From positions 43,403,948 to 43,467,947 of the forward strand of contig OX638370.1 in the NCBI GenBank assembly GCA_951812925.1: DNA of 64,000 bases, read 5' to 3'. The position numbers and the translations under genes were made by a program. Origin of the DNA: Calliopum simillimum (lineage: Eukaryota > Arthropoda > Insecta > Diptera > Lauxaniidae). Positions 25,090 through 62,759 of the stretch are shown one piece after another. How positions within the stretch are numbered: position 1 is the first letter of the stretch; the number at the start of each line of letters is the position of its first letter. The notes beneath the pieces are model-generated. The model was not told where the DNA came from and did no database searches. It saw only the letters and a program-made list of their open reading frames with translations.

Positions 25090-25429
25090 ACCCAAAATGT
25101 TTTTTCGGGGAAATGTTAAGAATGACTCTAGGATGAAATTAGCAAATTTTCCATTATTTTATATTAAACTATTGTTAAAAATTTTTTAGTACCTTTTTTG
25201 ATCTTCGAAGTTACGTAGCTTGACTAACTGTCTTCTTAAAATAGGTCATGTTTTGAGATATTAAAAAGTTCATTACTTCTTCATCGTTTAACATACTATC
25301 TCATGTCTCTGACTACCATTCGTAGCGAACGGACGTGTTTTTTCTTAGTTGCCGTGTGTAATAGCAAGTTGAACATTTCTCTCTCGCTTTTCTTTTTCGT
25401 TGTTCGTATGCTGTTGAAACCATACAGCT

Positions 25430-26590
25430 ATGGTTAGGCGAAAAAGAGCTAGCAAGCTTAAGGCGCCGAAAGTTATTGCAAGCACTTCGCAAATGCAAAC
25501 AACTCTGAGAAGATCAAACCGGTTTAGTGAATTTAATAAAATTCACGATGCTGAAATGAACGATGCCGCCGATGACGACGATGAAACTGTAATTTCCAAG
25601 GTCCCTCCTATTGTTGTTGACAACATTCATCAATTTGTTGATGTTATAAAACTTTTCGACGTTGGAAAACACAACTTTAAAAGACTGTCTATTGGCACTA
25701 AAATTTTTTCGAGCTCTTTAACAGATTATGATGCATGCATTAAAAAACTGCAGGAAATTAATTACAACTTCTTTACTCACCCTGTAAAAGATGGTTCGTG
25801 TTATAAACTAGTACTTTTTGGATTGCCGAAATTATTGCTTAGCGTAATTTCCGATGATTTAAAAGAAAATTACAACATTGACATCAAATCTATAAAAGAA
25901 ATAGAAACTAAACGTTCTAACGTTAATGATGCCATTTATATGATGGAGTTTGACAGAAATATTGTTCCCAAAAGTCAAATCTTAAAAATAAGATTTCTTT
26001 GCGGTGTTGCTGTGCAATGGAGAAAACCCACGAATAAGAAATATGGTCCTACGCTTTGCAACAAATGTTCTATGTTTGGACATGGCTCCTCAAACTGTCA
26101 TCGCTCAAAAACGTGTTTGGCGTGTGGACTTAATCATGACTTCAACAATTGTAAGCTAAAATGTGCCTCAAACAGTAATAATCTGGTGTTTAAGTGCTCA
26201 AACTGCATTAAAAGCAACAAAAAGCCATTTAACCACAGGGCAGATGATCCTAAGTGTCCCTGCCGCAGTGAATACCTCGAGCTGAGAAACCGCTTAACTA
26301 CTAACCGTAGTAAAGCCAAAGTGTCAAAGACGACTCATTTTGAAAGTTTTGATTTGCCTTTAATTAACTCGGCTTCAGTTGAAATTCGTCCACTCGCAGC
26401 CCAATTCAGAAGGAGCTATGCTGATGCAGCCAAGTCATCTCAACAACATCTTCAACAGCAAAACATTGATTTATTTTCGATTGAGGAGCTTTTTCAGATA
26501 TTTACTAAAGCTACTACAGAACTTCGCAAATGTAATTCAAAATTGGAGCAACTCAATGTTATTATGGGTTTGCTTAAATATGCGATATAA
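25430..26590 (+). CDS. LINE ORF1, Gag-like zinc-knuckle protein
   Basis: A 386-aa nucleic-acid-binding ORF1 protein. The N-terminus is basic (VRRKRASKLKAPK). A central region of about residues 110-195 is consistent with the RRM-like fold of jockey ORF1 proteins. Cysteine/histidine knuckles follow: CNKCSMFGHGSSNC, then CLACGLNHDFNNC, then CSNC and a distal CPC. In jockey-type elements ORF1 packages the RNA with ORF2 protein. The ATG at 25430 follows a 127-nt leader. The stop TAA (26588-26590) overlaps the ORF2 start ATG (26580), so ORF2 is probably translated by reinitiation or scanning. No stop or frameshift is visible. Confidence 0.88.
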   Translation: MVRRKRASKLKAPKVIASTSQMQTTLRRSNRFSEFNKIHDAEMNDAADDDDETVISKVPPIVVDNIHQFVDVIKLFDVGKHNFKRLSIGTKIFSSSLTDYDACIKKLQEINYNFFTHPVKDGSCYKLVLFGLPKLLLSVISDDLKENYNIDIKSIKEIETKRSNVNDAIYMMEFDRNIVPKSQILKIRFLCGVAVQWRKPTNKKYGPTLCNKCSMFGHGSSNCHRSKTCLACGLNHDFNNCKLKCASNSNNLVFKCSNCIKSNKKPFNHRADDPKCPCRSEYLELRNRLTTNRSKAKVSKTTHFESFDLPLINSASVEIRPLAAQFRRSYADAAKSSQQHLQQQNIDLFSIEELFQIFTKATTELRKCNSKLEQLNVIMGLLKYAI

Positions 26591-29252
26591 CTTAAAAAGA
26601 TTAAGCAGTCTTCAAATAATGCATTGGAATTGCCAAGGCATTACAACGTTTGATTCGTCAACTCAGCTTCACCGATTTTTAATGATCAAGTCTATTGATA
26701 TTGTCCTGCTTAATGAAACGTTTCTTAAACCTCACCATAAATTTCGCCTTCCCGGGTACAAAATTTACAGAAAAGATAGAGAGACTTTTGGTGGTGGTGT
26801 TGCGATTGCTATCCGTTGCGGTATCGAGCATAGTTCACTAAAGTCATATCCAACTAAAGTGATTGAAAATATTAGCATTGCTGTAAAGATCAACAACAGA
26901 AATGTAGTTTTCATTTCTGCCTACTGTCCAAGGTACTGCAATGACTTTCTAAGCGACATAAATCTCCTTACATCAAACAGTAACGATTTCTTCCTTCTTG
27001 GCGACCTAAATGCACACCATACCAGCTGGAATTGCAGAAAAACTAATCGATCCGGGCGAATTTTGTTTGACCATCAAAGTATTTCTAATTATTTTATATA
27101 TTATCCGGCAAGTCATACTAGAATGGCTCAAAATTTAAGCTATCGACACTCTTCTACAGTTGACCTACTATTATCAAACTCCTCTATGTCTTTTTCTAAC
27201 CTAATTGTTTATGGTAGTGAGTTGAACTCTGACCATGCCCCAATTAGCTTTCACATTAATGAACACATAGTTGAGTCAGAAGAGTATTACCCTGATTACC
27301 GAAATACTAATTGGGAAAATTTTAGATGCCTAATAAACGATAAAATTACATCTTCTGCTCTATTGCTCGAAGAATCCACTAGTTCTAATATTGAGTCTCA
27401 ATTCAATTGCCTTCTAAATATTCTTGAATCGGCTAGATTAGAAAAAATATCATACAAAAAACGTAAACATGACTCATTACAGTTGTCTGATTTATGCACT
27501 TCACTTATTTCAACAAGAAATAAGTATAGAAGAAAATTCCAAAGAAGTGGCAATGTAAGAGAAAAAAACTGTTATCTTGCTATAATCAAGCAACTATGTC
27601 AACTGATCTCTTTTCATATAAACAAACTAAAGAACGACCAGTGGTCTAACTTTTTATCGTCTCTAACTGTAGGGAATAAAAATTTCTGGAAAGTGACTAA
27701 ATATTTTAGTAAAAAGAAGAAAACTATTCCGACCTTAGTTGTTAATAATAGCGAAATTAGTTGCCATGAAGAAAAGGCAAACGCTATTGCAGACCATTTT
27801 TCTAAAGCCCACTCAATGCAGTCGTTCCCTACGCGTAGCATTGATAGACATGTCAATTCGATTATAACGGAGTTGAATGCAAATACTTCTTTTAATGAAA
27901 ACTCGGATACATTCACAGATGTTGCTGAAATAAAGTGTTTAATAAATTTACAAAAAAATCGTAAAGCTCCTGGTTTTGACAGAATTAACAATATAATTCT
28001 TAAAAATATTCCTGAATCTGCCTTAACTGTTTTAGCTAAAATCTTAAATTTTTGTCTACGTTCTTGCTATTTTCCGCAATGTTTTAAAAAAGCTAAGGTT
28101 GTGCCGATATTAAAACAAAATAAAGATCCAAAATCACCTTCAAGTTATCGGCCTATTAGCTTGTTGAGTTGTTTAGATAAAATTTTTGAAAAAATTGTCC
28201 TAGATAGACTGAAAAAGTTCACTGACGAAAACAATATTATAAACAAGTTTCAATTTGGTTTTAAAGCTGAACACAGTACGACTCATCAGGTTAAAAGAGT
28301 CGTTAATTTAATTAAGGCGAATAAACAAAAAAGGCTTTCCACTGGTGTGGTGTTTTTAGATATTGAAAAAGCCTTTGACTCGCTATGGCACAACGGTCTT
28401 TTGTATAAACTTAACGCTTTACGATGCCCCGTGTTTCTAATAAAAATTATTAAAAGTTTTCTTGCTAATAGGTCATTTGTAGTGCAAATTGAAGGTTTCT
28501 GTTCCACTGAAAGACAAATTAGTTCAGGGGTCCCACAGGGTTCTGCTTTATCACCTATATTGTACTCTATATATATCTCTGATTTTAAGTCTGCATCTAG
28601 TGTTGATTTAGCCTTTTACGCTGATGACAGCGCCTTAATCACATCTGGCAAGGTCTCAAACGCTGTTGTCAAGAAAATGCAGCACGCCTTATACTTAGCT
28701 ACAAAATTTTTTGACAAATGGAAAATTAAGGTTAATGAAGAAAAAACCCAATCTATTATATTTCCATTTAATAAGTCTCCGAAGCGTGTTCCTACTAGAC
28801 CGTTTTCAGTGCAAGGTAACGCAATACCGCTCACAAAATCAGTTAAGTACTTAGGAGTAATACTCGATGAAAAATTATTATTCAAACCTCACTTAGAGAA
28901 TGTCTGCATCAAAGCAACCAGGTGTAGTAGAGCACTATATTTCCTGTTAAATAAAAAGTCGAAATTAAACACTAAAAACAAAATGTTGTTATATAAAATG
29001 TGTATTAGGCCAATTCTGACCTATGCCTGCCCTGTTTGGAAGAATTGCGCAAAAACGCACTTAAATCGTCTTCAAGTTATTCAAAACAAGAATTTAAAGA
29101 CAATTTTCAGCCTGCGAAATAGATTTCCAACGTCAGACTTGCATACTCTGGCCCAAGAAAAAATGATCTTACATACGCTAAACGATTTGACCCTGTCATT
29201 CTCTAACAAATGCAGGATTTCAGCCCATGCCCTCTTGCGGAATTTGCCATAG
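26580..29252 (+). CDS. LINE ORF2, endonuclease-reverse transcriptase
   Basis: A protein of 890 aa from the ATG at 26580; the frame is open upstream from 26379, but that part overlaps ORF1. The N-terminus is an APE-type endonuclease: MHWNCQGI, LLNETFL, GGGVAIAI, LLGDLNAHH and SDHAPISF hold the catalytic N, E, D and H residues in order. The RT domain follows, with VPILKQNKDP...SYRPISLL, FLDIEKAFDSLWH, SGVPQGSALSPILYSIYI and the catalytic AFYADDSALI. The C-terminal ~200 residues form the usual thumb/connection region. Length and motif spellings fit the jockey clade. It nicks target DNA and primes reverse transcription of its own RNA. Confidence 0.9.
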   Translation: MRYNLKRLSSLQIMHWNCQGITTFDSSTQLHRFLMIKSIDIVLLNETFLKPHHKFRLPGYKIYRKDRETFGGGVAIAIRCGIEHSSLKSYPTKVIENISIAVKINNRNVVFISAYCPRYCNDFLSDINLLTSNSNDFFLLGDLNAHHTSWNCRKTNRSGRILFDHQSISNYFIYYPASHTRMAQNLSYRHSSTVDLLLSNSSMSFSNLIVYGSELNSDHAPISFHINEHIVESEEYYPDYRNTNWENFRCLINDKITSSALLLEESTSSNIESQFNCLLNILESARLEKISYKKRKHDSLQLSDLCTSLISTRNKYRRKFQRSGNVREKNCYLAIIKQLCQLISFHINKLKNDQWSNFLSSLTVGNKNFWKVTKYFSKKKKTIPTLVVNNSEISCHEEKANAIADHFSKAHSMQSFPTRSIDRHVNSIITELNANTSFNENSDTFTDVAEIKCLINLQKNRKAPGFDRINNIILKNIPESALTVLAKILNFCLRSCYFPQCFKKAKVVPILKQNKDPKSPSSYRPISLLSCLDKIFEKIVLDRLKKFTDENNIINKFQFGFKAEHSTTHQVKRVVNLIKANKQKRLSTGVVFLDIEKAFDSLWHNGLLYKLNALRCPVFLIKIIKSFLANRSFVVQIEGFCSTERQISSGVPQGSALSPILYSIYISDFKSASSVDLAFYADDSALITSGKVSNAVVKKMQHALYLATKFFDKWKIKVNEEKTQSIIFPFNKSPKRVPTRPFSVQGNAIPLTKSVKYLGVILDEKLLFKPHLENVCIKATRCSRALYFLLNKKSKLNTKNKMLLYKMCIRPILTYACPVWKNCAKTHLNRLQVIQNKNLKTIFSLRNRFPTSDLHTLAQEKMILHTLNDLTLSFSNKCRISAHALLRNLP

Positions 29253-29530: not shown

Positions 29531-30450
29531 GACTATGGGTTCATATGGAAGGAAATTTTATTTTCTTTCCATCAAAAGAATTCTGGAAGATCTAAAAAGA
29601 AAGCCATGGTGATTTTTTTGTAATTTTAGTACTGAAATGGATTAATCTTATTATTTTTTGACAAATACAAAAAAGCGCATCTGTACGGTAGAACCAATTT
29701 TAAAACAAAAACAAATTTAAAATTGTAAGTGTATTTTTTTCTTCTAAAATTTAAGCAAATACAGTACCAAAACAGTACCTACTTTCAAAAATTTCGCGAG
29801 AAGTACAGAACATTTTACTGCAATAAAGCGAAATGTAAGAGATTAAATAGCAATAAAAAACTTAAGAGATCGTACATAAGTATGTATGTTTGTAGTTGAA
29901 AAACGATGAAAATAAGACTACGGTACAAAAAATTCTAATACAAGTTTTTCCTTTATTTCTACCGCTTTTCCTATACATTTGACAGACAAGCTACAAAGAC
30001 AATAGAAAATTGCATGAAAATACTGCGCGGCTTCTAAAGTTTTTATGTTTTTTCACATTTTTTTACTTTGCACAGCAAAATAGTTACAACTGTTGTTTGT
30101 GCAAGATGAGGCATAGTTGGCAACAACAACAACAACAACAATAGTCAAAACAACAACAAAATCATTTGGAAAACATTGCAAATCACAATACTTAACAACC
30201 ACTCGCACAAAATACCTATAACAAAAACAGAACTGCACGACTGAAGAAAGTTGCTCAATGCTTATTACGCATTTAAGTAATTTCAAACTACTTTATTTTC
30301 TACTACGATCTCAAAACTCAAATTTCAGTTCAAAATGTTGCGGATGCTGAGAAAATATCGAACATGAAATATTTTAGAAGCTTTAAATTCTATTAGCTTT
30401 GCAGATGAAAAATTAAAGAGGTGCTGATAAGTATAAGTACAACTATATTT
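29531..30450. other. No gene recognised; (CAA)n patch
   Basis: AT-rich spacer between the LINE and the hexamer array. A short CAA microsatellite lies at about 30120-30139. No exon or transposon end found. Confidence 0.45.
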
Positions 30451-31890
30451 ACAATTACAATTACAATCACAATTACAATTACAATTACAATTACAATTAC
30501 AGTTACAATTACAATTACAATTACAATTACAATTACAATTACAATTACAATTACAATTACAATTACAATTACAATTACAATTACAATTACAATTACAATT
30601 ACAATTACAATTACAATTACAATTACAATTACAATTACAATTACAATTACAATTACAATTACAATTACAATTACAATTACAATTACAATTACAATTACAA
30701 TTACAATTACAATTACAATTACAATTACAATTACAATTACAATTACAATTACAATTACAATTACAATTACAATTACAATTACAATTACAATTACAATTAC
30801 AATTACAATTGCAATTACAACTACAATTACAATTACAATTACAATTACAATTACAATTACAATTACAATTACAATTACAATTACAATCACAATTACAATT
30901 ACAATCACAATCACAATCACAATCACAATCACAATCACAATCACAATTACAATTGCAATTACAATTACAATTACAACTACAATTACAATTACAATTACAA
31001 TTACAATTACAATTACAATTACAATTACAATTACAATTACAATTACAACTACAATTACAATTACAATTACAATTACAATTACAATTACAATTACAATTAC
31101 AATTACAATTACAATCACAATTACAATTACAATTACAATTACAATTACAATTACAATTACAATTACAATTACAATTACAATTACATTTACAATTACAATT
31201 ACAATTACAATTACAATTACAATTACAATTACAATTACAATTACAATTACAATAACAATTACAATTACAATTACAATTGCAATTACAATTACAATTCCAA
31301 TTACAATTACAATTACAATTACAATTACAATTACAATCACAATCACAATCACAATCACAATCACAATCACAATCACAATCACAATTACAATTACAATTAC
31401 AATTACAATTACAATTACAATTACAATTACAATTACAATTACAATTACAATTACAATCGCAATCACAATCACAATCACAATCACAATCACAATCACAATC
31501 ACAATCACAATCACAATCACAATCACAATCACAAACGCAATCGCAATTACAATTACAATTACAATTACAATTACAATTACAATTACAATTACAATTACAA
31601 TTACAATTACAATTACAATTACAATTACAATTACAATTACAATTACAATTACAATCACAATTACAATTACAATCACAATCACAATCACAATCACAATCAC
31701 AATCACAATCACAGTTACAATTGCAATTACAATTACAATTACAATTACAATTACAATTACAATTACAATTACAATTACAATTACAATTACAATTACAATT
31801 ACAATTACAATTACAATTACAATTACAATTACAATTACAATTACAATTACAATTACAATTACAATTACAATTACAATTACAATTACAATT
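30451..31890. repeat. (ACAATT)n hexamer array 1, 240 units
   Basis: The array is 1,440 bp long, exactly 240 hexamers, and keeps phase from end to end with substitutions only. Variant hexamers cluster: ACAATC blocks at about 30902-30944, 31335-31383, 31453-31536 and 31671-31712, with scattered GCAATT, ACAACT and ACAAAC. A ~75-bp variant pattern recurs at 30885-30962 and 31653-31735. Because ACAATT has no stop in any forward frame, very long repetitive open frames arise here; they are not genes. Confidence 0.95.
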
Positions 31891-32226
31891 ATAATAATAA
31901 TAATAGAGTTTAGCTTCTACAGCTATTAGCCTTCTTGACTATTTAGCTTCAAGCTTTAAATCAAGTAAAGCTTAAAATAAATTAGGAAAATGAAAAAATT
32001 ATGAGTTTTAATGTGTTATCTTTTTATAATTTTTTCTTAGCTTTTTCGCACTTTCTCAACATACCCACTCAGATCACTTGTATACATAACTACAAATGCA
32101 TAAATGCAGTTGTATGTATGTAATAACATGATCCAAGGATTGAATGTTAGAAAAAATTAACCCTGCATGCTGTGGGGCTCGGACAACACAAACAGTAAAT
32201 AAAAAAACAACCAATAACCAACAAAT

Positions 32227-35115
32227 TTAATTATAATAATTTTTCAATCTAAGTTTGAGTTGACCTTTTGACAAGCTAATGCTATATACTTCGCAATGAT
32301 TAATAAGAGTTGTCATGCGATTAAAAGGGGCTGAAGCCATATAATTAGTTCTACTAACCGGTTGATAAAATAATTGATTAGTGTTACGATTACTTCTTCG
32401 GTTAGTATTAAAATAAATATATTTAAGAAGCTCTGGTGCGGCAAGAGACCCTGTAATAAGCTGATGCAGATAAAGTATATCCGCTATATTTCTACGTGTA
32501 CTTAAAGACTGCATACGTAACAACATCAAACGATCCTCATAAGGAGGAATGTTTGAAGAATCCGTCCAATTAAAGCCTTTAAGAGCAAAACGAACAAAAT
32601 TTTTTTGAATTCTTTCAATTCTATCAATGTGTATATTATAAAATGGTGACCAAACTTGGCTAGCGTACTCTAAGTGAGGACGCACAATTGTGTTATATAA
32701 AGTCACCGTTACTAAAGGGCTATTAAATTCTTTTGCCCATCGTTTTATAAAGCCAAGCAGTGATGAAGATTTTTTACAAATTTGATTAATATGTTCATTG
32801 AACGTTAGTTTAGCATCAAAATTTATACCAAGGTCTTTGACTGAACCGACACGACAGATATGTTTATCATTAAATTTATAATTAAACTCTGCGATTTGAT
32901 TTTTTCTAGAAAAAGTCATTGTTTGGCATTTTTCAGAATTGAGATGTAAGTTATTTTTACAACACCAAACTTCAAAAGATTTCAAGTCAGATTGAAGTAG
33001 GAAACTGTCTTCAGCTCCCTTCACGATCCTGTATATTTTCATATCATCTGCATATATTAGCAAATGAGAGTTTTTAATAATGTGAGTAACATCATTTATT
33101 GCTAAAATAAACAGGAGAGGTCCCAAGTGGCTTCCTTGCGGAACACCTGAAGACGCAGTAAAAGGAGGTGACAACACCTTCCGAAATCTTATTTGATATG
33201 AACGATCAGACAAATAAGATTCGATCCAACTGACAAAATTTAAAGGAAATCCAAGCTTTTTTAATTTAAACAAAATTAAGTTATGTGGTAGTTTGTCAAA
33301 TGCTTTACTGAAATCTGTGTAGATACAGTCAACTTGCCCACCAGAGTCCAAAGAATTTAATGTAAAAGAAGTGAAATCAAGAAGGTTAGATACTGTAGAT
33401 CTGCCATTAACAAAACCATGCTGACGTGATGAAATGACTTCACCACAGCACACCTTAACTTGATCGTATATAATTTTTTCAAAAAGCTTTGGTATTGATG
33501 ATAGCTTGGCTATGGGCCTGTAATTTGAAACATCATTTTTACATCCTTTCTTAAAGATTGGACTTATGAATGATTCCTTCCAAAATTGAGGAAAATAGTT
33601 ATCGTTAATAGATTTATTAAATAAAAAACTGAGTGGATGACTCAAGATAGAGCTACAATTAATTAATAATGTTGCTGGAATACCATCAGGTCCACTTCCA
33701 ATATCGTCATCAATAGATGCAATATATTTCTCCACGAGTTCAGGGGAGAAAGATATTGCATTAAATGAAACTTTCGGGTCAGTTTCCATGAATTCAAAAT
33801 AGGGGATGTCGGGGCTAAATAAGTCAGATGAAAAAGAATTTTTAAATAAGTTAGCAAACAACCCCGCAATTATTTCGGGGTTGCTGGTAAGCTCGTCACC
33901 AGTCTTGAACTCAGTCGGAAAACCGTCTGACTTTTTTTTTGAATTAATAAATGCCCAAAAATTCTTGGGGTCTTGGAGAATGTTCAGCTTCATTTTATTC
34001 AAATACTCAGAATAAACAGAAGCTGATTTTAATTTAAATTCGTCAAACAGTTTGTTGTAATTTTCTAAATCGTTTCGGTTTTGACTACAGATATATTTTT
34101 TCCAAGCCCTGTTACGACTATTACGAATTTTCTTTAAGTCTCTTGTATACCAAGGGTATGAAGAGTTATTAACGTATTTAAATGTATATGGCACTGCCAA
34201 AGCTATAGCTTTAAAAAGTTCTTTATAGAAAAACTTAATGTTATTATCCAAAGAATTATTTTCAAAGAAGTTTAAAAAATTATTAACATTGTTCCTTAAA
34301 ATGTCATTCAACTTCCAAAAGTCAGCTTTTTTGAAATTGAATTCATAAATTTTAATAGAAGAGCATTCATTATTTAAATTATTTTGATCTGATTGGTACA
34401 ATATATTCAAAGGTGGATGATAAGTATCAACCACACTTAGGGCATTGAAGGCGTTATTTACAACAACCTTACTACTATCTGTAACCAAAACTAAGTCAAG
34501 TTGTCGTCCGTGACAATTCGTTATACAACTAACTTGTTGTAAATCAGTTAAAATTTCGTCAACAAAAATTTGTTGTTGTCGGGTTTTAGGACATGACGCA
34601 TAATAATATGTGTCTTCCTCAGACAAAGTCCATTTTAGGTCAGGTAGATTGAAATCACCTAACAATAAAATGTCGTCATTAACGTCAAGTTTTTGAGTAA
34701 TGTACTCTACGGCCTGTGCAAGACTATCGTAGACTTCTATGCTACTATTAGGAGGAATATAGGTGTTAAGAATATATAAACTTGACTTGCGAATAGTAAC
34801 TTCTACGCATATTAGTTCAATGTCAGATACACAGGGAATGTCAAACAAAGAACTCGTCAAATGATTTTTTATTGCTATTAAAACGCCTCCACCAACTGGA
34901 GAAAGGTCATTTGTGTGTCTGTCTCTTCTAAAGACATTAAAACTATTGTCAAATAACTCCGAGTTAAGTATATTGTTATTTAACCAAGTCTCGGTAAAAA
35001 TGATAACATCCTCAGAAAAATTCTGAGTTGCTAAAAATAAATCATGCGTCTTTGAACGTAGGCCCCTTACATTTTGGTAGTAAAGGGATAGCCGATTTAG
35101 TTTTTTGAATTGTGT
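32227..35115 (-). CDS. LINE ORF2, endonuclease-reverse transcriptase
   Basis: The frame is open from 35115 (just after a TAA) to the stop at 32227, about 960 codons, with no ATG at its very beginning. The first ~90 codons hold endonuclease motifs YYQNVRGLRSK, IIFTETWLN and GGGVLIAIKN, and LLLGDFNLPDLKW follows. RT motifs are FISPIFKKGCKNDVSNYRPI, YTDFSKAFDKLPHNL, SSGVPQGSHLGPLLFILAIN and LLIYADDMKIY. The C-terminus ends LKLRLKNYYN. The motif spellings differ clearly from the jockey-type LINE at 25-29 kb, so it is another lineage within the jockey/CR1/I assemblage; the clade is not fixed. No internal stop is seen. Confidence 0.82.
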   Translation of the reverse strand, partial: TQFKKLNRLSLYYQNVRGLRSKTHDLFLATQNFSEDVIIFTETWLNNNILNSELFDNSFNVFRRDRHTNDLSPVGGGVLIAIKNHLTSSLFDIPCVSDIELICVEVTIRKSSLYILNTYIPPNSSIEVYDSLAQAVEYITQKLDVNDDILLLGDFNLPDLKWTLSEEDTYYYASCPKTRQQQIFVDEILTDLQQVSCITNCHGRQLDLVLVTDSSKVVVNNAFNALSVVDTYHPPLNILYQSDQNNLNNECSSIKIYEFNFKKADFWKLNDILRNNVNNFLNFFENNSLDNNIKFFYKELFKAIALAVPYTFKYVNNSSYPWYTRDLKKIRNSRNRAWKKYICSQNRNDLENYNKLFDEFKLKSASVYSEYLNKMKLNILQDPKNFWAFINSKKKSDGFPTEFKTGDELTSNPEIIAGLFANLFKNSFSSDLFSPDIPYFEFMETDPKVSFNAISFSPELVEKYIASIDDDIGSGPDGIPATLLINCSSILSHPLSFLFNKSINDNYFPQFWKESFISPIFKKGCKNDVSNYRPIAKLSSIPKLFEKIIYDQVKVCCGEVISSRQHGFVNGRSTVSNLLDFTSFTLNSLDSGGQVDCIYTDFSKAFDKLPHNLILFKLKKLGFPLNFVSWIESYLSDRSYQIRFRKVLSPPFTASSGVPQGSHLGPLLFILAINDVTHIIKNSHLLIYADDMKIYRIVKGAEDSFLLQSDLKSFEVWCCKNNLHLNSEKCQTMTFSRKNQIAEFNYKFNDKHICRVGSVKDLGINFDAKLTFNEHINQICKKSSSLLGFIKRWAKEFNSPLVTVTLYNTIVRPHLEYASQVWSPFYNIHIDRIERIQKNFVRFALKGFNWTDSSNIPPYEDRLMLLRMQSLSTRRNIADILYLHQLITGSLAAPELLKYIYFNTNRRSNRNTNQLFYQPVSRTNYMASAPFNRMTTLINHCEVYSISLSKGQLKLRLKNYYN

Positions 35116-35572
35116 TTATTAGAAAATCGAGCAGTCTTCTTAGTTTCTTTGAATTCAGAAATGAAGACATTATCGACCCATACTTTTGACCGCAGGAAAA
35201 TTATCAGAAGCCACCGTTATTTTAAAGGAAGCATGTGTTGGCTTATTGCCAAGTTTCCTACATGAAACATAAGCGTCAAGAGGAATGACATTATTCTGTC
35301 TTAAAAACTCTATAATATTGTCAGAAGTTGTGTCAGGGTGCAGCCACGAAACAAAAATTGATTTCGATTTAGGCAATGCACGCAAGGAGACAGGGATAAC
35401 AACCGTATCAACAACTTGGGTATTGGTTGATGTTGACGGGGTTGGATGGACACTATTCGGCATATTCGACGAAGTTGTAGGAATAGAAGAAGATGAATTG
35501 GCTGCAGCGACAGTGTTGTCTAAACTTTTAGTAAGCTTTCGTCTCGGTTTTCTTTTCTTTTCAAGGGACTTA
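35097..35572 (-). pseudogene. LINE ORF1 C-terminal fragment, frameshifted
   Basis: The minus-strand frame starts at the array edge with a basic KSLEKKRKPRRKLTKSLDN stretch. It then runs through a serine/threonine linker into SIFVSWLHPDTTSDNI, LDAYVSCRKL and ASFKITVASDNF, the C-terminal fold found in ORF1 proteins of many arthropod LINEs. At about 35186 the frame shifts: the zero frame stops at 35170, while the neighbouring frame continues VWVDNVFISEFKETKK to a TAA at 35097-35099. That tail overlaps the start of the ORF2 frame by ~18 nt, the expected ORF1/ORF2 arrangement. It is therefore both truncated and frameshifted. Confidence 0.65.
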
Positions 35573-36010
35573 AATTACAATTACAATTACAATTACAATT
35601 ACAATTACAATTACAATTACAATTACAATTACAATTACAATTACAATTACAATTACAATTACAATTACAATTACAATTACAATTACAATTACAATTACAA
35701 TTACAATTACAATTACAATTACAATTACAATTACAATTACAATTACAATTACAATTACAATTACAATTACAATTACAATTACAATTACAATTACAATTAC
35801 AATTACAATTACAATTACAATTACAAGTACAATTACAATTACAATTACAATTACAATTACAATTACAATTACAATTACAATTACAATTACAATTACAATT
35901 ACAATTACAATTACAATTACAATTACAATTACAATTACAATTACAATTACAATTACAATTACAATTACAATTACAATTACAATTACAAATACAATTACAA
36001 TTACAATTAC
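35573..36010. repeat. (ACAATT)n hexamer array 2, ~73 units
   Basis: Almost pure ACAATT repeats, with single variants ACAAGT (near 35824) and ACAAAT (near 35986) and a degenerate right edge (CCATTACGAAT). It has the same strand orientation as array 1 and is far more homogeneous. The long NYNYNY-type and VIVIVI-type open frames are artefacts. Confidence 0.95.
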
Positions 36011-36015
36011 CATTA

Positions 36016-37248
36016 CGAATAGAGTACTCGATACTTATCGCTTAGTGTATCGTAATTCATAGTGCACATCGCAGTTGTTTTGTTGTTTAAAGTTTAAGTA
36101 GTTTTCATTTTGTTATTTGAGTCACTTCCATTATTATCATGTTTTTATTTCTGTAGGCATTGGAATACGCGAAAGAAGGCAAAAGCTTAAAGGGCGTGGT
36201 GCACAAACATCTTTTGGTGTTGACTGCATTGCCACGCTTTGTATTGCGTCGCGTTGCGTCAAACTTTTGCGCCTTTTGATTTAATTTTTATTTTTTTTTT
36301 TCTTTTTATTTTGACTTGTGTTTGTACAATTTTCTTTGAAGTTGGCAAAAACTTTTCTAATTTAAAATTTTAACTTAAAACATATAATACTAACGGCATA
36401 CTGCCGGAAAAAAGGATGAGGTTACTGCGCGGAGCTTGGCGGTGTGCTAAAATCGAAGACAAAAGAATTGCAGAAGTTTTGCAGCATCATGTGGGCATAT
36501 TTACACGACGACGAAAACACTAAAGGCTTTAATATTTGTTTTTGTTTATGACAGTACCTTCAATTTGAACGCAACACTTACAATGCTGGGGAGTTTTTTC
36601 AATGTATTTGAAGCGAAAAGTAAACGGAAATTAAAGTTTTTGCAAATAACTTTATTGGTTACTACGACTTTTTTTTATTATTAATTAATTTAATGATTTT
36701 TATTCTTTCGGTCACGACACTCAGTACATTTCTTGTCTTATAATCCAAGCAAAACAATTTAACCATCAAAAATTTCCCTAAGGCATAAATCTGTTGTAGC
36801 TGACAACAGCACGCTGCTGACACAGGGTTAATGCATTAATGTTGTTAGCAAGTACGAGGTGCAGTAAGATGGTATAACCAAAACAAACCACAGCTAAGTA
36901 GCTTGCGAATGCTCTTGGCACTGGCTAATTGGTTTTATGTTGGTATCATAAAAAAAAAATAGCAGAGAAGGGATTTTTTATTACATGCGAGAGAAATTAT
37001 GCGAAAAATGTCATTAAAAATGCATATTTATGAGATATAAAAAAAAGGAATATATATGTATAATGCACAAGCTGCATGCCACTGGCAGAGTAAAGTGATA
37101 AAGTACGCGAAAGTGATGAAGAAAATTAAGTACAAGTGGAGAATTATATGGGTCAACACTTAGATGACTTTAAGGTTTAAATTTTACTGATTTATTTAAC
37201 AATTGTGAATTGATATAAATACAATAAAGAAATGTCATACAATAATTT
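36016..37248. other. No gene recognised
   Basis: Mixed-composition sequence without obvious repeats, exons or transposon ends. It is the largest stretch in the middle of the window that looks unique. Nothing supportable. Confidence 0.4.
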
Positions 37249-39284: not shown

Positions 39285-39378
39285 TAAGTGAAAAATATTG
39301 CGAAGCAAGTGGGATTAATATCAAATAACTGGTGCAGAAACTGTTCCGAACCCGACGAGGAAGAAACGGTAGAGCACG
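39285..39378 (+). pseudogene. LINE 3' end, left piece (upstream of insertion)
   Basis: The frame reads AKQVGLISNNW followed by CRNCSEPDEEETVEH, and is then interrupted at the target duplication AGCACG (39373-39378). CRxC...E.T..H is the first half of the C-terminal CCHC finger found in LOA/R1/jockey-related LINE polyproteins. The other half lies at 44371. Confidence 0.65.
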
Positions 39379-39740
39379 AGTAGGGTGTATTCGTATGTTC
39401 GAGCGCACTCCTGGCAGAGGCCCCTGGCAGAATTTTCCCCCTTCCTAGTACATCGTGGCAGAATTTTCCCCCTTCCTAGTACATCTTGGCAGAATTGCTC
39501 CTGTAGGAGCCCCTTCCTAGTATATCTTGGCAGAATTGCTGCTGAAGGAGACAGAATTTTTTTTCCTAGTTGAATTTTTCTAAAGATATTTTTATAGGTC
39601 ATTTTTTGTTGTTTCTTATGTTTTTTATTTTTTGTTGTTGTTTTATATGCTAATGGGGTTATGGTGAACATATACCTTAGTAGATTATGGAGGTAGTTCT
39701 AAAACTTATTGTTACCGGAAGCGATGACTCATATTAAAAG
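39379..39740. repeat. Left terminal inverted repeat, Polinton-like element
   Basis: About 360 bp, nearly identical to the inverse of 44003-44364. It carries three ~38-bp tandem units with CTTCCTAGTACATC and TGGCAGAATT (39410-39550). It ends inward near GTTACCGGAAGCGATGACTC. The long open frames across both TIR copies are mirror images and have no protein signature. Confidence 0.85.
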
Positions 39741-40104
39741 GCTTTGACTGATACTTTGTTTCTTCCTCTTGTGCAACCGAAATCAATGATGATCCTCTTT
39801 GTAGGTTATTTTTATTGAAAATAATCATTATGAAAGTTTTAATAGTGACGTTGTTTAGCTGTACACAATCCACAGATAACTAAATAATTTTTAGGGTAAT
39901 TCATATGTTTGATACATATCTACTCAATGTTAATTTGTTGCTGATCATAAATACGATAAACAAATTTAGCAAAAAATATATAGGTGATAACATAAGATAC
40001 TGAAACCAACGTTCATCCAATTCGTAATCGTAAATAACGAATTCGGTCTTTAGTTAGTATAGCCCATTTCTCTCAAATGATTTCTACACATGAGAGAAGT
40101 ATGA

Positions 40105-40380
40105 AAAGTTTTGAAGCTTAAAATTTTGATATGTTTGAAAAGTTTGAGGTTTCAAATTTTTCAAAAATTTAAACTTTTTTCAAATTTTTCAAATGTTTTC
40201 AAATTTTTCAAATATTTTCAAATATTTGAAAATTTGAAAAATTTAAACTTTTTTCAAATTTTTCAAATGTTTTCAAATTTTTCAAATATTTTCAAATATT
40301 TGAAAATTTGAAAAATTTTAACTTTTTTCAAATTTTTCAAAATTTTTTAAATTTTTCAAATACTTGCAATTTGAAAATAT
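40105..40380. repeat. TTTTTCAAAT-rich tandem repeat
   Basis: Repeated TTTTTCAAATATTTTCAAA-type words, including a ~105-bp direct duplication (about 40166-40317). It is the inverse in sense of the TTTGAAAAA array at 41360-41810. Noncoding. Confidence 0.7.
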
Positions 40381-41239
40381 TTTTATTTTAGGTACAAGCA
40401 AATGCTTGGTAGCATTATTTTATTACAATTTGAGAACATAATAATATTACATTCTACCTTCATATGTTCGCCAGCAAATGTATGTACCTAGTTATATGGT
40501 TCATCATTTGCACAGACCATAATGTGGCGCACAGCATCATAATCCATATCATATGGTGTGTCATCAGTACTTGGTTGATGTATTCACCTTAAGAATTAAA
40601 GCTCACCTAGTTAACATTTGGTAGATCTTTATAGCTTCGCACCCATTTTTGAGAATTTTGAATTTTAATATGTAGATTTCCATATAAAATGTCATATTTT
40701 TGTCCAGAATCTACATAATAACCCTTAAATAAAGAAGGTGGCATTCAGGTTATATGTAGAAGCAGCTACAGTAGTTCCATACATTTTTCTAAAGTGCTGA
40801 GTTTCACGTATTTATATGTACGTATATGTAAGTAATTATATTTATAAAGAACTAAACTTACTTACATACATAATTATATATTTTTTCAAAATACATATCT
40901 ACAGATATGTTCATATATACCTTGTTTTATCAAATGAAGCACTATTTTATTTAAGTTATGTAGCTCTAAGAGGATCTTTTCAGGTGATCTTTCAAAATGC
41001 GTGCAATCATATGAAGCATTTTGGAATGTCCAATGTATATTTCATTATAAAAACAAACTTAGTAATAAATTTATGATCAAACTCCTTAGTTATGATGGAT
41101 CTTCATGTAAGCAAACTGGGATTTTATTCGTTTGGTTTTGTAAACAAATATGAAATTAAAACAAAAAATGTATGTATATAATCTAGGGATGGTAAACTAG
41201 AGAACATCTGTCATACACATACAAACCAATACCTTTTGT

Positions 41240-41345
41240 TGAAGAGGATCATTATGAGGATTATTAGGATTATTATGATGATAATGCTAGGAGTCCACCA
41301 ACTTAAATGAGAAAACTAGATTTTGAGAAAATTAGAGAAATAGTT
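41240..41345 (+). pseudogene. Duplicated fragment of the Polinton-type gene
   Basis: GATAATGCTAGGAGTCCACC and ACTAGATTTTGAGAA occur here in the same order and spacing as at 42103-42152 inside the gene downstream. The copy has a stop right after CCACCAACT and lacks any longer frame. It shows that an internal piece of the gene was duplicated, with a simple-repeat array expanded between the copies. Confidence 0.55.
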
Positions 41346-41359
41346 TTAATAATTGATAA

Positions 41360-41815
41360 GTTTCAAATTTTCAAATGTTTGAAAAGTTTGAAAAAGTTTG
41401 AAGTTTCAAGTTTTCAATTTGAAAAAGTTTGAAAAAATTTGAAGTTTCAAGTTTTCAATTTGAAAAAAGTTTGAAAAATTTGAAGTTTCAAGTTTTCAAT
41501 TTGAAAAAAGTTTGAAAAAGTTTGAAGTTTCAAGTTTTCAATTTGAAAAAGTTTGAAAAAATTTGAAGTTTCAAGATTTAAATTTGAAAAAAGTTTGAAA
41601 AATTTGAAGTTTCAAGTTTTCAATTTGAAAAAAGTTTGAAAAATTTTGAAGTTTCAAAATTTTCAATTTGAAAAAAGTTTGAAAAATTTGAAGTTACAAG
41701 TTTTCAATTTGAAAAAGTTTGAAAAAATTTGAAGTTTCAAGTTTTCAATTTGAAAAAAGTTTGAAAAATTTGAAGTTTCAAAATTTTCAAATTGAAAAAA
41801 GTTTGAAAAAGTATT
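41360..41815. repeat. ~58-bp tandem array, TTTGAAAAAGTTTGAA type
   Basis: About eight units containing GTTTGAAAAA, GTTTGAAGTTTCAAG and TTTTCAATTTG. It ends just upstream of the Polinton-type gene. The minus-strand open frame over it (41663-41863) is low complexity and not a gene. Confidence 0.8.
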
Positions 41816-41863
41816 TAAAGGATTCAAGAATGAATTCAATATCAGTATACTTTTAACTTTCAA

Positions 41864-43159
41864 TTGTATAACATCATGAATCCAAAAATTTTAAAAGATC
41901 TTATCAAAACTCGAAATACTTTAAAGAAGAAATACAAGCAAATAAAATTGAAAGAAACAGCAAATGATGATTTCTTAGAGAAAACTTTTAAGCCAATAAC
42001 AAAACCATTAAAAGAATTATATAATGCGTCTAATGAAAACCTAATAGAAAATAAAAAGATTGGAAACAACTTTAATCGAGATTATAATGGGGATTAGTAT
42101 GACGATAATGCTAGGAGTTCACCAACTAAAAAGAGCAAACTAGATTTTGAGAAGTTTGACAACAAGAAACAAGAAAAAAGTTCATCTAATGAAGACGTTC
42201 CAATATCTGAGAAAGATATTGATGAAGATGTCGAAAGTGAAAACAGTAAATCCTTCAAAAGCCAAAATAGTGAAGACGTTGAAAGTGAAAATAGTGAAGC
42301 TTTTGAAAGCGGAAATAGTATGGAGCTTGAAAGAGAAAATTTTTCTGTTTTAAAGGACTTGAGTGGTTTAATAAAGTCAGCTGATTTCGATATATTGTAT
42401 GGACCTAAAAAACAATTGGACGGAAATTGGAAATTAGGAAACATCAATTGTAAAATAAATAATGAGAAAATCATATTGCCTAATCACAAAAGTTGGTTTC
42501 TAAACCCTGGACTACATCAATTATTATTTTTAAAGAAGCCTAATCCAAATATCTATAATGATGATGATAAAAAAATATATAAGGCCATTTTAGAACAATC
42601 AAATGTTCATAAAGTTGGATTTGTATCAAATGGTCGTATTAGGGGTCCAAATTCATATAAGTATAGAACAATAATTAAATATTTATTTACTAAAAACCCC
42701 AGATCTAGTAATAAATACGGAGGCAACGTACTAATGCAATCAAATCAGCATAAATCTAATAATTTTGATGATTGGAATGCTCCAACTGAACTGGCGGATA
42801 GATCAGGAAACAAACAAAAACTTAGGAAAAAATCCACATATAGCGATTTGTATGGAGACAACATGAAAAAACAATTAAATGAGCGCAAGTCTAAGTGTGA
42901 TGACTGGGAGGATTCTAATGAATTGGAGGATAGATCGAGAGATAATCAGCAATTAAGGGAAAAATCTGCATCTAGTGATATATATAAAAATTATAGACAA
43001 ATGCAAATTAATGAATGCCAACCTAATTATGATGACTGGGAAGATCCTAATGAATTGGTTGGCAGACTGCGGCTTTTAATAACATTCGGGTGGAAAAATC
43101 ATATTAGCGAAATAGTTTTAATAATTAATGAATTGCGTGAAGCTGGCATTATAGTTTAG
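41864..43159 (+). pseudogene. Polinton-associated protein gene with one in-frame TAG
   Basis: A single frame of 431 sense codons is broken only by TAG at 42095-42097 (after codon 77). The N-terminal ~75 residues are lysine-rich; then come an acidic, serine-rich linker, a globular part (GPKKQLDGNWKLGN, LNPGLHQLLFLKKPNPNIYN, YKYRTIIKYLF) and a C-terminus with repeated D(D/E)W(E/D)xxNEL motifs ending DPNELVGRLRLL...IINELREAGII. From general knowledge, proteins with this middle block and an (N/D)PNELV.RLRLL...ELREAGI ending recur in insect Polinton/Maverick elements; the molecular role (possibly a virion-related protein) is not established. Downstream of the stop, an ATG at 42320 could give a 279-aa product. 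Its position between Polinton-type TIRs supports the family call. Confidence 0.65.
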
Positions 43160-43529
43160 ATAAAAATACATATATGGTTGATCGATTGATTGATTGGTTG
43201 AATCTTCAATACACTTTTGGAAAAACATAAATAAATCTTTAAGAAAAATTGTATTACTTCTAAGAAAAATTTTGTACCGAAATATCAATAAGCTATTAAA
43301 AAATACAAAAAAAAATTTTACTATTGTTCTTATTTAATATAGGTCAAGAAAATCCAAAATTTCAAGTTTTGATACATACTGTATACAAATTATGAATTAA
43401 AGGGTCTTTTGTTTGATTGTTTATTTAGACTGAAATATAATACTCAATATAGTGAAGCTGCCAATATTATACGTATATTTTAGCTTCAACAAAGCAAGAG
43501 GGAAAAATGATCAATAAACAAATTGCAGC

Positions 43530-43740
43530 ATACGACGTACATACACACATATTTGTTTATCGAAAATTGGTTGACATATAAAATATGTGATCCACTAAGA
43601 TATATAAATAAGACTTGTACCTCATAAGTAATATGAAAAATATTGTTCATACACACACAGACACATACATATTTGCATACCGAAAATCGGTGGACACATG
43701 AAATATGTGAGATATACAAATAACAAGTCTTATCATGATA
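43530..43740. repeat. Two ~125-bp tandem units
   Basis: ACATACACACATATTTG...CGAAAATTGGTTGACAT is repeated as ACACATACATATTTGCAT...CGAAAATCGGTGGACACAT. Both units end in an ATATGTGA word, followed by AAGACTTGT in one and ACAAGTCTTA in inverse in the other. Noncoding interior of the Polinton-like element. Confidence 0.55.
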
Positions 43741-44002
43741 AGTTTTAATATTTTCACCCAGTCTGAAGTTTCTGATAACCTGATACATTAATTTCAAATT
43801 CATATTGAAATTCTGGTCTAGGGGAGGGGGTACGTGGATATGAGTTTGATTATCTTGACCTTTGTTAGATTGTCATGGATCCTACATATATCAGTTGGAC
43901 GAAAAAATGTTATAAATGTATAATAGTGTAAGTACCTAATATACAAAATCTATTTTTTACATATAAAAACATTATATTCGCCAGATAGCATGATTTTAAT
44001 AC

Positions 44003-44364
44003 CTTATAATATGAGTCATCGCTTCCGGTAACAATAAGTTTTAGAACTACCTCCATAATCTACTAAGGTATATGTTCACCATAACCCCATTAGCATATAA
44101 AACAACAACAAAAAATAAAAAACATAAGAAACAACAAAAAATGACCTATAAAAATATCTTTAGAAAAATTCAACTAGGAAAAAAAATTCTGTCTCCTTCA
44201 GCAGCAATTCTGCCAAGATATACTAGGAAGGGGCTCCTACAGGAGCAATTCTGCCAAGATGTACTAGGAAGGGGGAAAATTCTGCCACGATGTACTAGGA
44301 AGGGGGAAAATTCTGCCAGGGGCCTCTGCCAGGAGTGCGCTCGAACATACGAATACACCCTACT
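44003..44364. repeat. Right terminal inverted repeat, Polinton-like element
   Basis: Inverse of 39379-39740, differing at very few positions; the two arms have hardly diverged. It ends GAATACACCCTACT directly before the AGCACG duplication. Confidence 0.85.
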
Positions 44365-44370
44365 AGCACG

Positions 44371-54227: not shown

Positions 54228-57200
54228 GTAAGTTGCAAAAAAGCGAAAGCAAAAATTTAAATACAGTTTCGTAAAAGTGATGTAACGTTAGGAAAGTTTA
54301 AGAACAATCAAAATTGTAGTGAAGACATAAAGTAACAATTTGAATCTCAATTAAGGGGAAGTTTTGTTATCATTCATAAAATTTTTAAAAGAATACATCA
54401 GAATTCGTCGCATGCTACATACGAACTAAAAAATATTTAACAGTTTTATTTAATTTCAAATAATAGTCCCCCTTAATTCCAAACGAAAACAAGTTTTGCT
54501 TGATGTTGTCATTTGGGTTTTTTGTTTTTCTTCTATTACTTTACTATTATTATACATAACAAAAATAACATCACAAACTTATTGTAATAAACTTTTCAAA
54601 TTAATGATATTTCTTCCTATTTATAAATTTTCAAGGTCACACTAAGCATTATTTGCGCATGCGTACACGCTGATGTCTCACATTTGCAGCAGCCGTACGG
54701 TAGCAGAACGCCTCAACCTGTTGCAACACCATATGTGTTCAGCTATCAAGCGGGACGCTTACCCGGCCATGTAGATCACCAACATACAGAAGTCTCTGAT
54801 GGCTCTGGTGTGATACGCGGTGCATTCTCTTATATCGATCCAAAGAATGAGCTACGTACTGTACAATATACAGCTGATAAAAATGGTTTTCATCCCGAAC
54901 TCAGTCATAAAAATGAAGATACCGAGTCGGTAAAACGCGCCAAACAGAAACACTTTGCACTTTACAATCGCATTGCGCAAGAGCATGCACAGGCTGCGCA
55001 GACGCAACAATACGTAGAGCCACAGCACTATGCACAACCGCAGCATTATGCACAACCACAACAGCAGCAACAATATCATCATCATGTGGTGAGTTAAAGC
55101 TTTTCGTTTCGTTTGCATTACTGACTAAAAGAGCGTGGTGGCATTAAATAGCTCACGTTTTTGCAAAAAGTTACCCATTTTACCCAAAGGCGATTGTAAG
55201 CTGCTCTGTAGAATGTATTTATTGGATTTTATAATATCGTCAAAGAGAATTTCGACATTTGAAATGCTAAAGAAAACTAGTAAGGGTGACCGACACCTTT
55301 GGTCTGGCCAACAATTAAATACCCTACACTGCAACATTTTTAAAATTTTGCTTGTACGTAGTTTTTGCTCAGACCGTGCGCTAACTACTTCAAATATTTG
55401 TGCGAAAGTTGCATAAACTCAAGAAACGCTTTCTTTACAGCGTTTCAAAAACTTTGAACGGTAGGTGCCACGCCTTCTTGTCCGAATCAACCAGATTTTT
55501 GCTCAGATCTTACATTTCTGACTTACGTGTCTAACTATACTTTGGTTGAATTATCTCCTTTCAGTATAGCATTTTAAAATTTTTGCTTTAAGGAAGGTGC
55601 CACGCCCCCTCGTCCAAGTTTACCAATTTTTTTGTTCAAAGCTTGAGCTTACGATGCTTATTGTCTGAGTGAAATTTGGTTGGATTATCTTAACAAACGC
55701 TTTCAGTACAGCATTTTGAAACTTTTATTTATATGGGAGGTGCCACTCCCCCTAGTCCGAATTTGTCTAGTTTTTGGATAGAGCTTGCAGTTACTATTCC
55801 TAGTAGTTACGTCTATTTTGCTTGCGTTATCGTGAACAATGCACATAAAATTGCGTTTTGAATATATTTTTCGTATGGGTGGTAGGCGTGTACAATAGCT
55901 ATGGGCTTAATAACAATTTTTCGATTTTTATACCCTGCGGTGGTTTTTTATGTGAGGTTTGATGAAAAAGTAAGAGAACCAAAATTTGGAGGGGGTGGGG
56001 TGGGTCTAACCCTTGCCGGTTTTGAGTCAAAGTTCGAATTTCGGGGGTAAAATTTTGAAAAAAGCTTCTAACTGCAAACCAGTTATACTTACAGGCATAG
56101 AATGTATGACCAACCCCCATTATATTTTCTACCCCAACATTTTCACTACACATACTTACCCCCTATCTCTACCCCTAAGGGTCGCTCCCATATAAGTCTT
56201 CATTTTCATGACATTTTTATAAAATCGACCTCCACCACCCCCAGGCTGCCCCTACATTGTTCAAAAGTATGACCTACCCCCATTATGTTTTCCACCCCAT
56301 CATTTTCAGGAAACATACTTACCCCCTATCTCCACCCCCTAGGGGTGCTCCCATACAAAAATACTCATATTTATGTTAATTAATAAACATTTTTTCTCTC
56401 ATCAACCCTGCCCCCATAGTGCTACTTAGGAAGGTAAAATGAATGACCGACCCCTATTAGTTTTTCCAGCTCGACAATTTTACAAAACAAACTTGCCCTC
56501 TACCTCCGCCCTCTAGGGGTGCTCTCATACAAAAGCGGTCCGGGGTGCGACTTTATACTGGTGTACTAATATTGCTTCTGCTACAAAAATTAATTGCCAC
56601 AGTTACAGTGGTTTTGAATTAAAAAAAAAAAAAAACGAGTATCACGTATGACGGAAACGAGCAGTTACTGGGTGTGCCGATCGTACCATCCGGTAAAAAT
56701 AAAGGACGGAGATAGAGGGCAAGTTTGTTTAGTAAAATTGTCGGGCTGGAAAAGTTAATGGGGGTCGGTCATACATTTTACCTTCCTAAGTAGCAATATG
56801 GGGGCAGTAGGGGTGATGAGAGCAAAAATGTCTATTAATTAACATAAATATGAGTATTTTTGTATGGGAGCACCCCTAGGGGGTGGAGATAGGGGGTAAG
56901 TATGTTTCCTGAAAATGATGGGGTGAAAAAAATAATGGGGGTAGGTCATACTTTTGAACAATGTAGGGGCAGCCTGGGGGTGGTGGAGGTCGATTTTATA
57001 AAAATGTCATGAAAATGAAGACTTATATGGGAGCGACCCTTAGGGGTAGAGATAGGGGGTAAGTATGTTTGGTGAAAATGTTGGGGTAGAAAATATATTG
57101 GGGGTTGGTCATACATTCTATGCCTGTAAGTATAACTGGTTTGCAGTTAGAAGCTTTTTTCAAAATTTTACCCCCGAAATTCGAACTTTGACTCAAAACC

Positions 57201-62751: not shown

Positions 62752-62759
62752 CTTACGAT

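What the first reader, a model, noticed from the sequence alone, without database searches (positions are those of the whole stretch)
39373..44370. Short Polinton/Maverick-like element with ~360-bp TIRs and a 6-bp target duplication
Direct observation: perfect AGCACG duplication, AG...CT ends, near-identical TIRs of about 360 bp, and a gene whose C-terminus (DPNELV, RLRLL, ELREAGI) recurs in insect Polintons. Full Polintons are 15-20 kb; this 5-kb unit has none of the core genes, so it would be a non-autonomous family moved in trans. The TIRs are barely diverged, which implies recent insertion.
Basis: partly seen in the sequence, partly recalled or inferred. Interest (0 to 1): 0.85.

Follow-up and report, generated by a model that had tools for sequence, protein, structure and literature searches.

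The report
Deleted satellite-like Polinton transposon copy
A 5-kb piece of jumping DNA in an insect genome is a recently inserted, cut-down relative of giant virus-like Polinton transposons; it lacks the machinery to move itself, but belongs to a family that has kept its own version of one Polinton gene.

Summary
A 4,986-bp element (39379-44364) has inverted repeats identical over 358 bp, AG...CT ends and a perfect 6-bp duplication, AGCACG. The genome holds many TIR-matched copies; 15 of 16 whose two ends I read have a perfect 6-bp duplication. Three long copies (15.9, 17.4, 22.1 kb) with the same ends carry integrase, polymerase, capsid and ATPase genes: these are Polinton ends.

Correction: the 5-kb form is one copy; its deletion junction occurs once in the genome. 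It is a ~3.2-kb internal deletion of a 7.3-8.7-kb non-autonomous family.

New: the gene is of DUF8207 type. Nine of nine remote versions here lie 1.1-1.6 kb from a Polinton integrase; of 23 window-type places one has an integrase remnant within 100 kb. Window-type genes are 35-38% identical to the autonomous version, carry a repeated extra segment and show moderate purifying selection. The window copy has one in-frame stop. A satellite Polinton lineage is the boldest reading, not proven.

The parts
39373..39378 (.). left target-site duplication AGCACG
39379..39736 (+). left terminal inverted repeat, 358 bp identical to the right one, begins AGTAGGG
39425..39550 (+). 31- and 41-bp tandem sub-repeats inside the left TIR
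39734..39743 (.). junction of a ~3.2-kb internal deletion; about 3 bp of shared sequence (TTA) at the break, read by eye; junction found once in the genome
39742..41240 (.). non-coding interior, near-identical to the 8.3-kb copy L010 (0 of 399 and 2 of 861 mismatches in the two stretches compared, 39742-40140 and 40380-41240)
40150..40361 (.). AT-rich tandem array, 74-bp unit
41260..41362 (+). decayed remnant of a second copy of the gene (matches 42084-42153 and 43103-43134)
   Evidence: families D6, D7
41358..41810 (.). AT-rich tandem array, 41-bp unit, just upstream of the gene
41876..43159 (+). DUF8207-type Polinton gene, 427 codons, interrupted by one in-frame TAG at 42095-42097
42692..43058 (+). 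~135-nt (45-aa) tandem repeat in the C-terminal part of the gene, absent from the autonomous version
44007..44364 (-). right terminal inverted repeat, ends CCCTACT
44365..44370 (.). right target-site duplication AGCACG

Best explanation
The element is a recently inserted, internally deleted copy of a non-autonomous Polinton family in an insect genome. Shown: Polinton-type ends and 6-bp duplication, the same ends on long copies that carry the Polinton gene set, a 7.3-8.7-kb non-autonomous family from which this copy differs by a ~3.2-kb deletion, and a DUF8207 gene version peculiar to that family. Inferred: the integrase and polymerase of long copies act in trans on the shared ends (linear DNA copied or excised, then integrated with a 6-bp stagger). 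Inferred and less sure: the family keeps its own DUF8207 protein because it serves the element, perhaps by binding its ends or acting with the integrase, beside whose gene the autonomous version lies.
For: TIR-matched copies: 66 matches, 40 of 130 candidates scored. 6-bp duplication perfect in 15 of 16 pairs. Pfam on the C4 long copy: DJR capsid PF21738 (2.4e-127), rve (4.4e-13), phospholipase A2-like domain (3.2e-15), A32-type ATPase (4.2e-7), DNA_pol_B_2 (3e-9); the same genes by tblastn in the C46 and C139 copies. Deletion derivation. DUF8207 type; aphid proteins P0024 and P0029 run from this domain into an rve integrase (P0029's rve match, 24.9 bits, is under Pfam's cut-off of 32.6). Integrase beside 9 of 9 remote-type DUF8207 genes. 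Excess of synonymous changes among 6 intact window-type copies, 30 syn / 42 non-syn against 18.9 syn expected, reached in 0.0015 of simulations; no excess in the two other frames.
Against: Movement in trans was not observed. The first ~160-180 bp of the TIR match the long copies at only about 84-87%. One paired copy (L012) lacks a matching duplication. The window's own gene has an in-frame stop. Selection is moderate (ratio about 0.5); of ten single comparisons with L011, 6 are below P 0.05 with all changes weighted alike, 4 with transitions weighted twofold and 0 with fourfold. The second gene of some copies, ZF254, shows no selection. The protease of the long copies is only weakly matched (E 0.028).
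Confidence: 0.85

Rival explanations
1. The DUF8207 gene is a passenger: it came from an autonomous Polinton lineage that is extinct, absent from the assembly or unseen, and the selection signal was made there; the non-autonomous copies keep it only because they are young.
For: Seven window-type copies are open over 436-441 aa and 93-97% identical to the window's; selection is only moderate; ZF254 in the same kind of copies shows none; one window-type place (C2:116.10 Mb) has a 127-residue integrase remnant 7.4 kb away, start to start, on the opposite strand, which could be a trace of such a parent and could not be read.
Against: All 8 full-length Polinton integrase matches in the genome are accompanied by the other DUF8207 version; window-type matches range from 51 to 100% identity over 23 places, some decayed, which suggests that the gene has been in the family for a while.
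Confidence: 0.45
2. The integrase-less family is autonomous by another route, with DUF8207 itself (with a zinc-finger protein) as recombinase.
For: DUF8207 is the gene common to the complete window-type copies and is under selection.
Against: The same kind of gene lies in Polintons that have an rve integrase; the 6-bp duplication is shared with them; no significant fold or sequence match to a recombinase (inconclusive).
Confidence: 0.03
3. A cut-and-paste transposon with a 6-bp duplication such as Ginger2.
For: Ginger2 also has 6-bp targets (passages of PMC2836005).
Against: Ginger2 ends are TGTNR and its preferred targets RTATAY; here ends are AGTAG and targets mixed; TIR-matched long copies carry Polinton capsid and polymerase genes.
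Confidence: 0.01
4. Assembly artefact or chance inverted repeat.
For: None found.
Against: Perfect duplication, and TIR-matched copies with different flanks on each of C1 to C5 and on small contigs.
Confidence: 0.01

Closest known systems
Insect Polintons/Mavericks (autonomous, 15-20 kb)
   Same: 6-bp duplication, TIR ends of the same kind as the long copies of this genome, DUF8207-type gene
   Different: none of the core genes; 5 kb; DUF8207 version only 35-38% identical and with an extra tandem segment
Bracovirus-borne Maverick of Cotesia (DUF8207 protein R9XLH4; Dupuy et al. 2011, seen only as an entry in the reference list of PMC4028283; that R9XLH4 lies in that Maverick is my inference)
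   Same: DUF8207 protein, 36% identical over the part aligned to the model of the homologue P0002
   Different: here on an integrase-less element of another insect
Short Maverick fragments of the Hessian fly (passages of PMC8504770)
   Same: Mavericks of 0.6-4.5 kb in an insect, far below full size
   Different: described there as deleted fragments with only a polymerase or integrase domain, whereas this family keeps neither, has whole ends and duplications, and keeps DUF8207
Non-autonomous DNA transposons and MITEs (deletion derivatives; general knowledge)
   Same: keep the ends, lose the enzymes, presumably moved in trans; even a 943-bp copy exists (L016)
   Different: the 7.3-8.7-kb family keeps a gene under selection
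Virus satellites such as virophages or phage satellites (general knowledge)
   Same: a smaller element with its own gene that would depend on a larger relative
   Different: no evidence of particles, interference or helper dependence was obtained

Membership tests
Polinton/Maverick (as an autonomous member) | 6-bp target-site duplication (the rule is recalled) | tested here: met
   window and 14 further pairs perfect, 15 of 16
Polinton/Maverick (as an autonomous member) | long terminal inverted repeats with AG...CT ends (recalled), shared with full-length copies | tested here: met
Polinton/Maverick (as an autonomous member) | 15-20 kb with PolB, rve integrase, ATPase, protease (PMC4028283, passages) | tested here: not met
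   4,986 bp, only the DUF8207 gene; so it is filed as a non-autonomous derivative. The TIR-matched long copies meet integrase, PolB and ATPase; their protease match is weak (C48-like, E 0.028)
Non-autonomous Polinton derivative | TIR-matched copies in the same genome that encode the Polinton enzymes | tested here: met
Non-autonomous Polinton derivative | movement in trans by those enzymes | not testable with these tools
   inferred from shared ends and duplication length
Ginger2 | TGTNR ends and RTATAY targets | tested here: not met
   ends AGTAG, mixed targets
DUF8207 (PF26634; that the two are the same is recalled) | sequence relation to members | tested here: met
   31 of 31 proteins at E <= 0.01 (9e-27 to 2e-6) carry PF26634; 24 columns are invariant over a 29-row alignment that includes the window's piece. 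A direct Pfam scan gave no hit, nor for seven such homologues, so the Pfam copy used seems to lack the model

The most novel reading that the evidence does not exclude
The 7.3-8.7-kb family is a satellite of Polintons: a lineage without integrase, polymerase or capsid that has carried its own, far-diverged DUF8207 gene for a long time because the protein serves the satellite itself, for example by directing helper integrase or polymerase to its own ends or by competing with the helper's protein.
Probability: 0.35. Interest if true: 0.8.

Novelty: new variant of a known kind. Interest (0 to 1): 0.55.

Why it matters
Polintons are held to be virus-like transposons. Non-autonomous forms that merely decay would be ordinary; a multi-copy lineage that sits almost wholly apart from the integrase yet keeps one gene in frame would be a satellite of a transposon-virus in animals, and would point to DUF8207, a protein of unknown role found beside the integrase at 9 of 9 places in this genome, as something an element needs for itself. 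One insect genome with presumed helpers and dependants side by side makes that testable.
Full report
Observation. The window lies in a 690-Mb genome of 334 contigs, C3:43403948-43467947; an insect cuticle protein at 54627-55097 says insect, the species is not known to me. The element is 39379-44364. AGCACG flanks it on both sides. The arms are identical over 358 bp; the one mismatch in the 363-bp repeat reported by the tool, at position 359, is at the deletion junction. The arms carry 31- and 41-bp tandem sub-repeats. GC is 0.284 in the element and 0.321 in the window.

Sister copies. The TIR search gave 66 matches (40 of 130 candidates scored, so a lower bound). For 12 pairs and 4 further I read both ends; the comparison of the flanking bases is by eye. 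Perfect 6-bp duplications: window AGCACG, L009 GACCAC, L010 ACTCTC, L011 TGCACG, L013 CTGATT, L014 TAGATC, L015 TTGGAG, L016 TATAAC, C46 AACCCA, C139 GTTGCA, C4 GTCGCT, L028 AGCATG, L030 ATTTCT, L034 ATTGTA, L033 TATGAC (its left end is mutated). Exception: L012 (ATCATG against TACATC). So 15 of 16. Other fetched copies showed only one end and were not counted. Sizes run from 943 bp (L016) to 22.1 kb (C139).

Autonomous-type copies. Three long copies were read in pieces: C46 (15.9 kb), C139 (22.1 kb, with what looks like a foreign insertion), C4 (17.4 kb). In the C4 copy: double-jelly-roll domain PF21738 (2.4e-127), rve integrase (4.4e-13), phospholipase A2-like domain (3.2e-15), A32-type ATPase (4.2e-7), a weak C48-type protease match (0.028), zinc fingers at the start of the polymerase frame and DNA_pol_B_2 (3e-9; the other polymerase pieces scanned there and gave no polymerase family). 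The C46 and C139 copies match the same genes by tblastn. In the C4 copy the polymerase region is spread over several frames, and the C46 integrase has one in-frame stop; I describe them only. L038, L040 and L041 are three further left ends with such genes; no integrase match was listed near L038.

The 8-kb family and the origin of the window copy. L010, L011, L015, L028, L030 and L034 are complete copies of 7.3-8.7 kb with duplications; L026 and L027 are incomplete in the fetched stretch. L010 has 1,458-bp arms with 6 mismatches. The window equals the outer end of such an element joined to its right part: query 7-369 matches L010 101-438 and query 362 onward matches L010 from 3658, i.e. about 3.2 kb is missing, including most of one arm. 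The junction, allowing 2 mismatches, occurs once in the genome. The left interior is nearly identical to L010 (0 of 399, 2 of 861 mismatches) and the right interior to L026 (0 mismatches and one gap in 842), whereas the gene is 97.6-98.1% identical to the five full copies compared (windows): the copy is young, and I infer that the family has recombined. Smaller derivatives L009, L012, L013, L014 and L016 show no match to the gene at E <= 1e-8.

The gene. Its downstream piece has 31 homologues at E <= 0.01, all carrying PF26634, recalled as DUF8207; the model of one homologue matches R9XLH4, named DUF8207, of a Cotesia bracovirus, at 8.4e-18. Two aphid proteins run from this domain into an rve integrase (P0024, and P0029 under Pfam's cut-off). 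It differs from the version in the long copies (35-38% identity over most of its length, 54-60% over the last 55 residues) and has an extra ~45-residue segment repeated in tandem, not seen in the autonomous version or in five homologues aligned with it. Genome-wide, with all 51 candidates scored, I grouped the 53 matches by place: 23 places of the window type (matches of 51-100% identity) and 9 of a remote type (25-38% in the main match). All 9 remote-type genes lie 1.1-1.6 kb (start to start) from a Polinton integrase match. Among the 23, one (C2:116.10 Mb) has a 127-residue integrase remnant 7.4 kb away on the other strand, one lies 163 kb from that same remnant, and 21 have none within 200 kb (only integrase matches of 55% identity or more, 13 hand-picked places, were used). 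The integrase search scored 128 of 2,827 candidates, most of the listed ones gypsy-like at 24-35%, so remnants could be missed. Complete window-type elements read end to end (window, L010, L011, L015, L028, L030, L034: 7 of 7) hold no integrase, capsid or ATPase match and no polymerase match at E <= 1e-8 (for the window); the zinc-finger protein of L010 shares 33 residues at 58% with the zinc fingers of the polymerase frame. Five of them (L011, L015, L028, L030, L034) hold a fragment of the protease and a 137-residue gene 92.7-94.2% identical to the C4 copy's, so pieces have been exchanged with autonomous relatives or kept from them.

Selection. Pairwise pN/pS among six copies was 0.22-0.38 in 13 of 15 pairs; the other two had no non-synonymous or no synonymous change. 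Ten single comparisons with L011: 6, 4 and 0 below P 0.05 at transition weights 1, 2 and 4. Pooled over 7 copies (L010, L011, L015, L027, L028, L034, window): 22 synonymous, 27 non-synonymous, ratio 0.30-0.46, P 5e-5 to 0.006 by the weight. With mutation types held fixed, for six intact copies (L010, L011, L015, L027, L028, L043; L034 left out for length, L030, L031, L033, L039 as broken or partial): 30/42, expected 18.9 synonymous, 0.0015 of simulations as high, and no excess in the other two frames. Shared history makes these P values approximate. ZF254, a zinc-finger protein of five copies, gave 5/16, no selection; the 137-residue gene (nine rows, four of them autonomous) gave 9/15, P 0.03-0.16.

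Reading. By its ends it belongs with Polintons, but it fails the test for an autonomous member; it is a non-autonomous derivative. That its movement uses the enzymes of the long copies is inferred. Why a family without machinery keeps its own DUF8207 gene is the open question; a helper-dependent satellite and a passenger gene from an unseen parent remain about equally possible.

Noticed in passing
25418-29252: Two-frame LINE-type element: a 390-aa frame without Pfam match, then a 962-aa frame with endonuclease and reverse transcriptase.
   Followed up: partly
32227-35115 (minus strand): A second LINE-type 962-aa open frame with endonuclease and reverse transcriptase.
   Followed up: partly
30409-31929 and 35570-36062: Long arrays of what reads, from the translations, as a six-base unit (AATTAC), open in several frames.
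   Followed up: no
61262-62752 (minus strand): Open 496-aa frame matching PF07253 'Gypsy' (E 6.9e-62), recalled as the envelope family of errantiviruses.
   Followed up: no
54627-55097: Insect cuticle protein frame, PF00379.
   Followed up: no
41260-41362: Remnant of a second, internally deleted copy of the DUF8207 gene upstream of the present one.
   Followed up: partly
L013 (C4:66415436-66418577) and L014 (C2:104216654-104220521): Foldback-like derivatives: arms of 897 in 2,941 bp (L013) and 717 in 3,668 bp (L014).
   Followed up: no
L043 (C4:37145900-37153900): A window-type DUF8207 gene joined to a right end like that of the autonomous copies, with no left end found in the stretch: perhaps a recombinant.
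   Followed up: partly
L026 (C3:123883591-123893000): Sister element interrupted by frames that look like a Tc1-type transposase and a LINE (my reading, not scanned).
   Followed up: no
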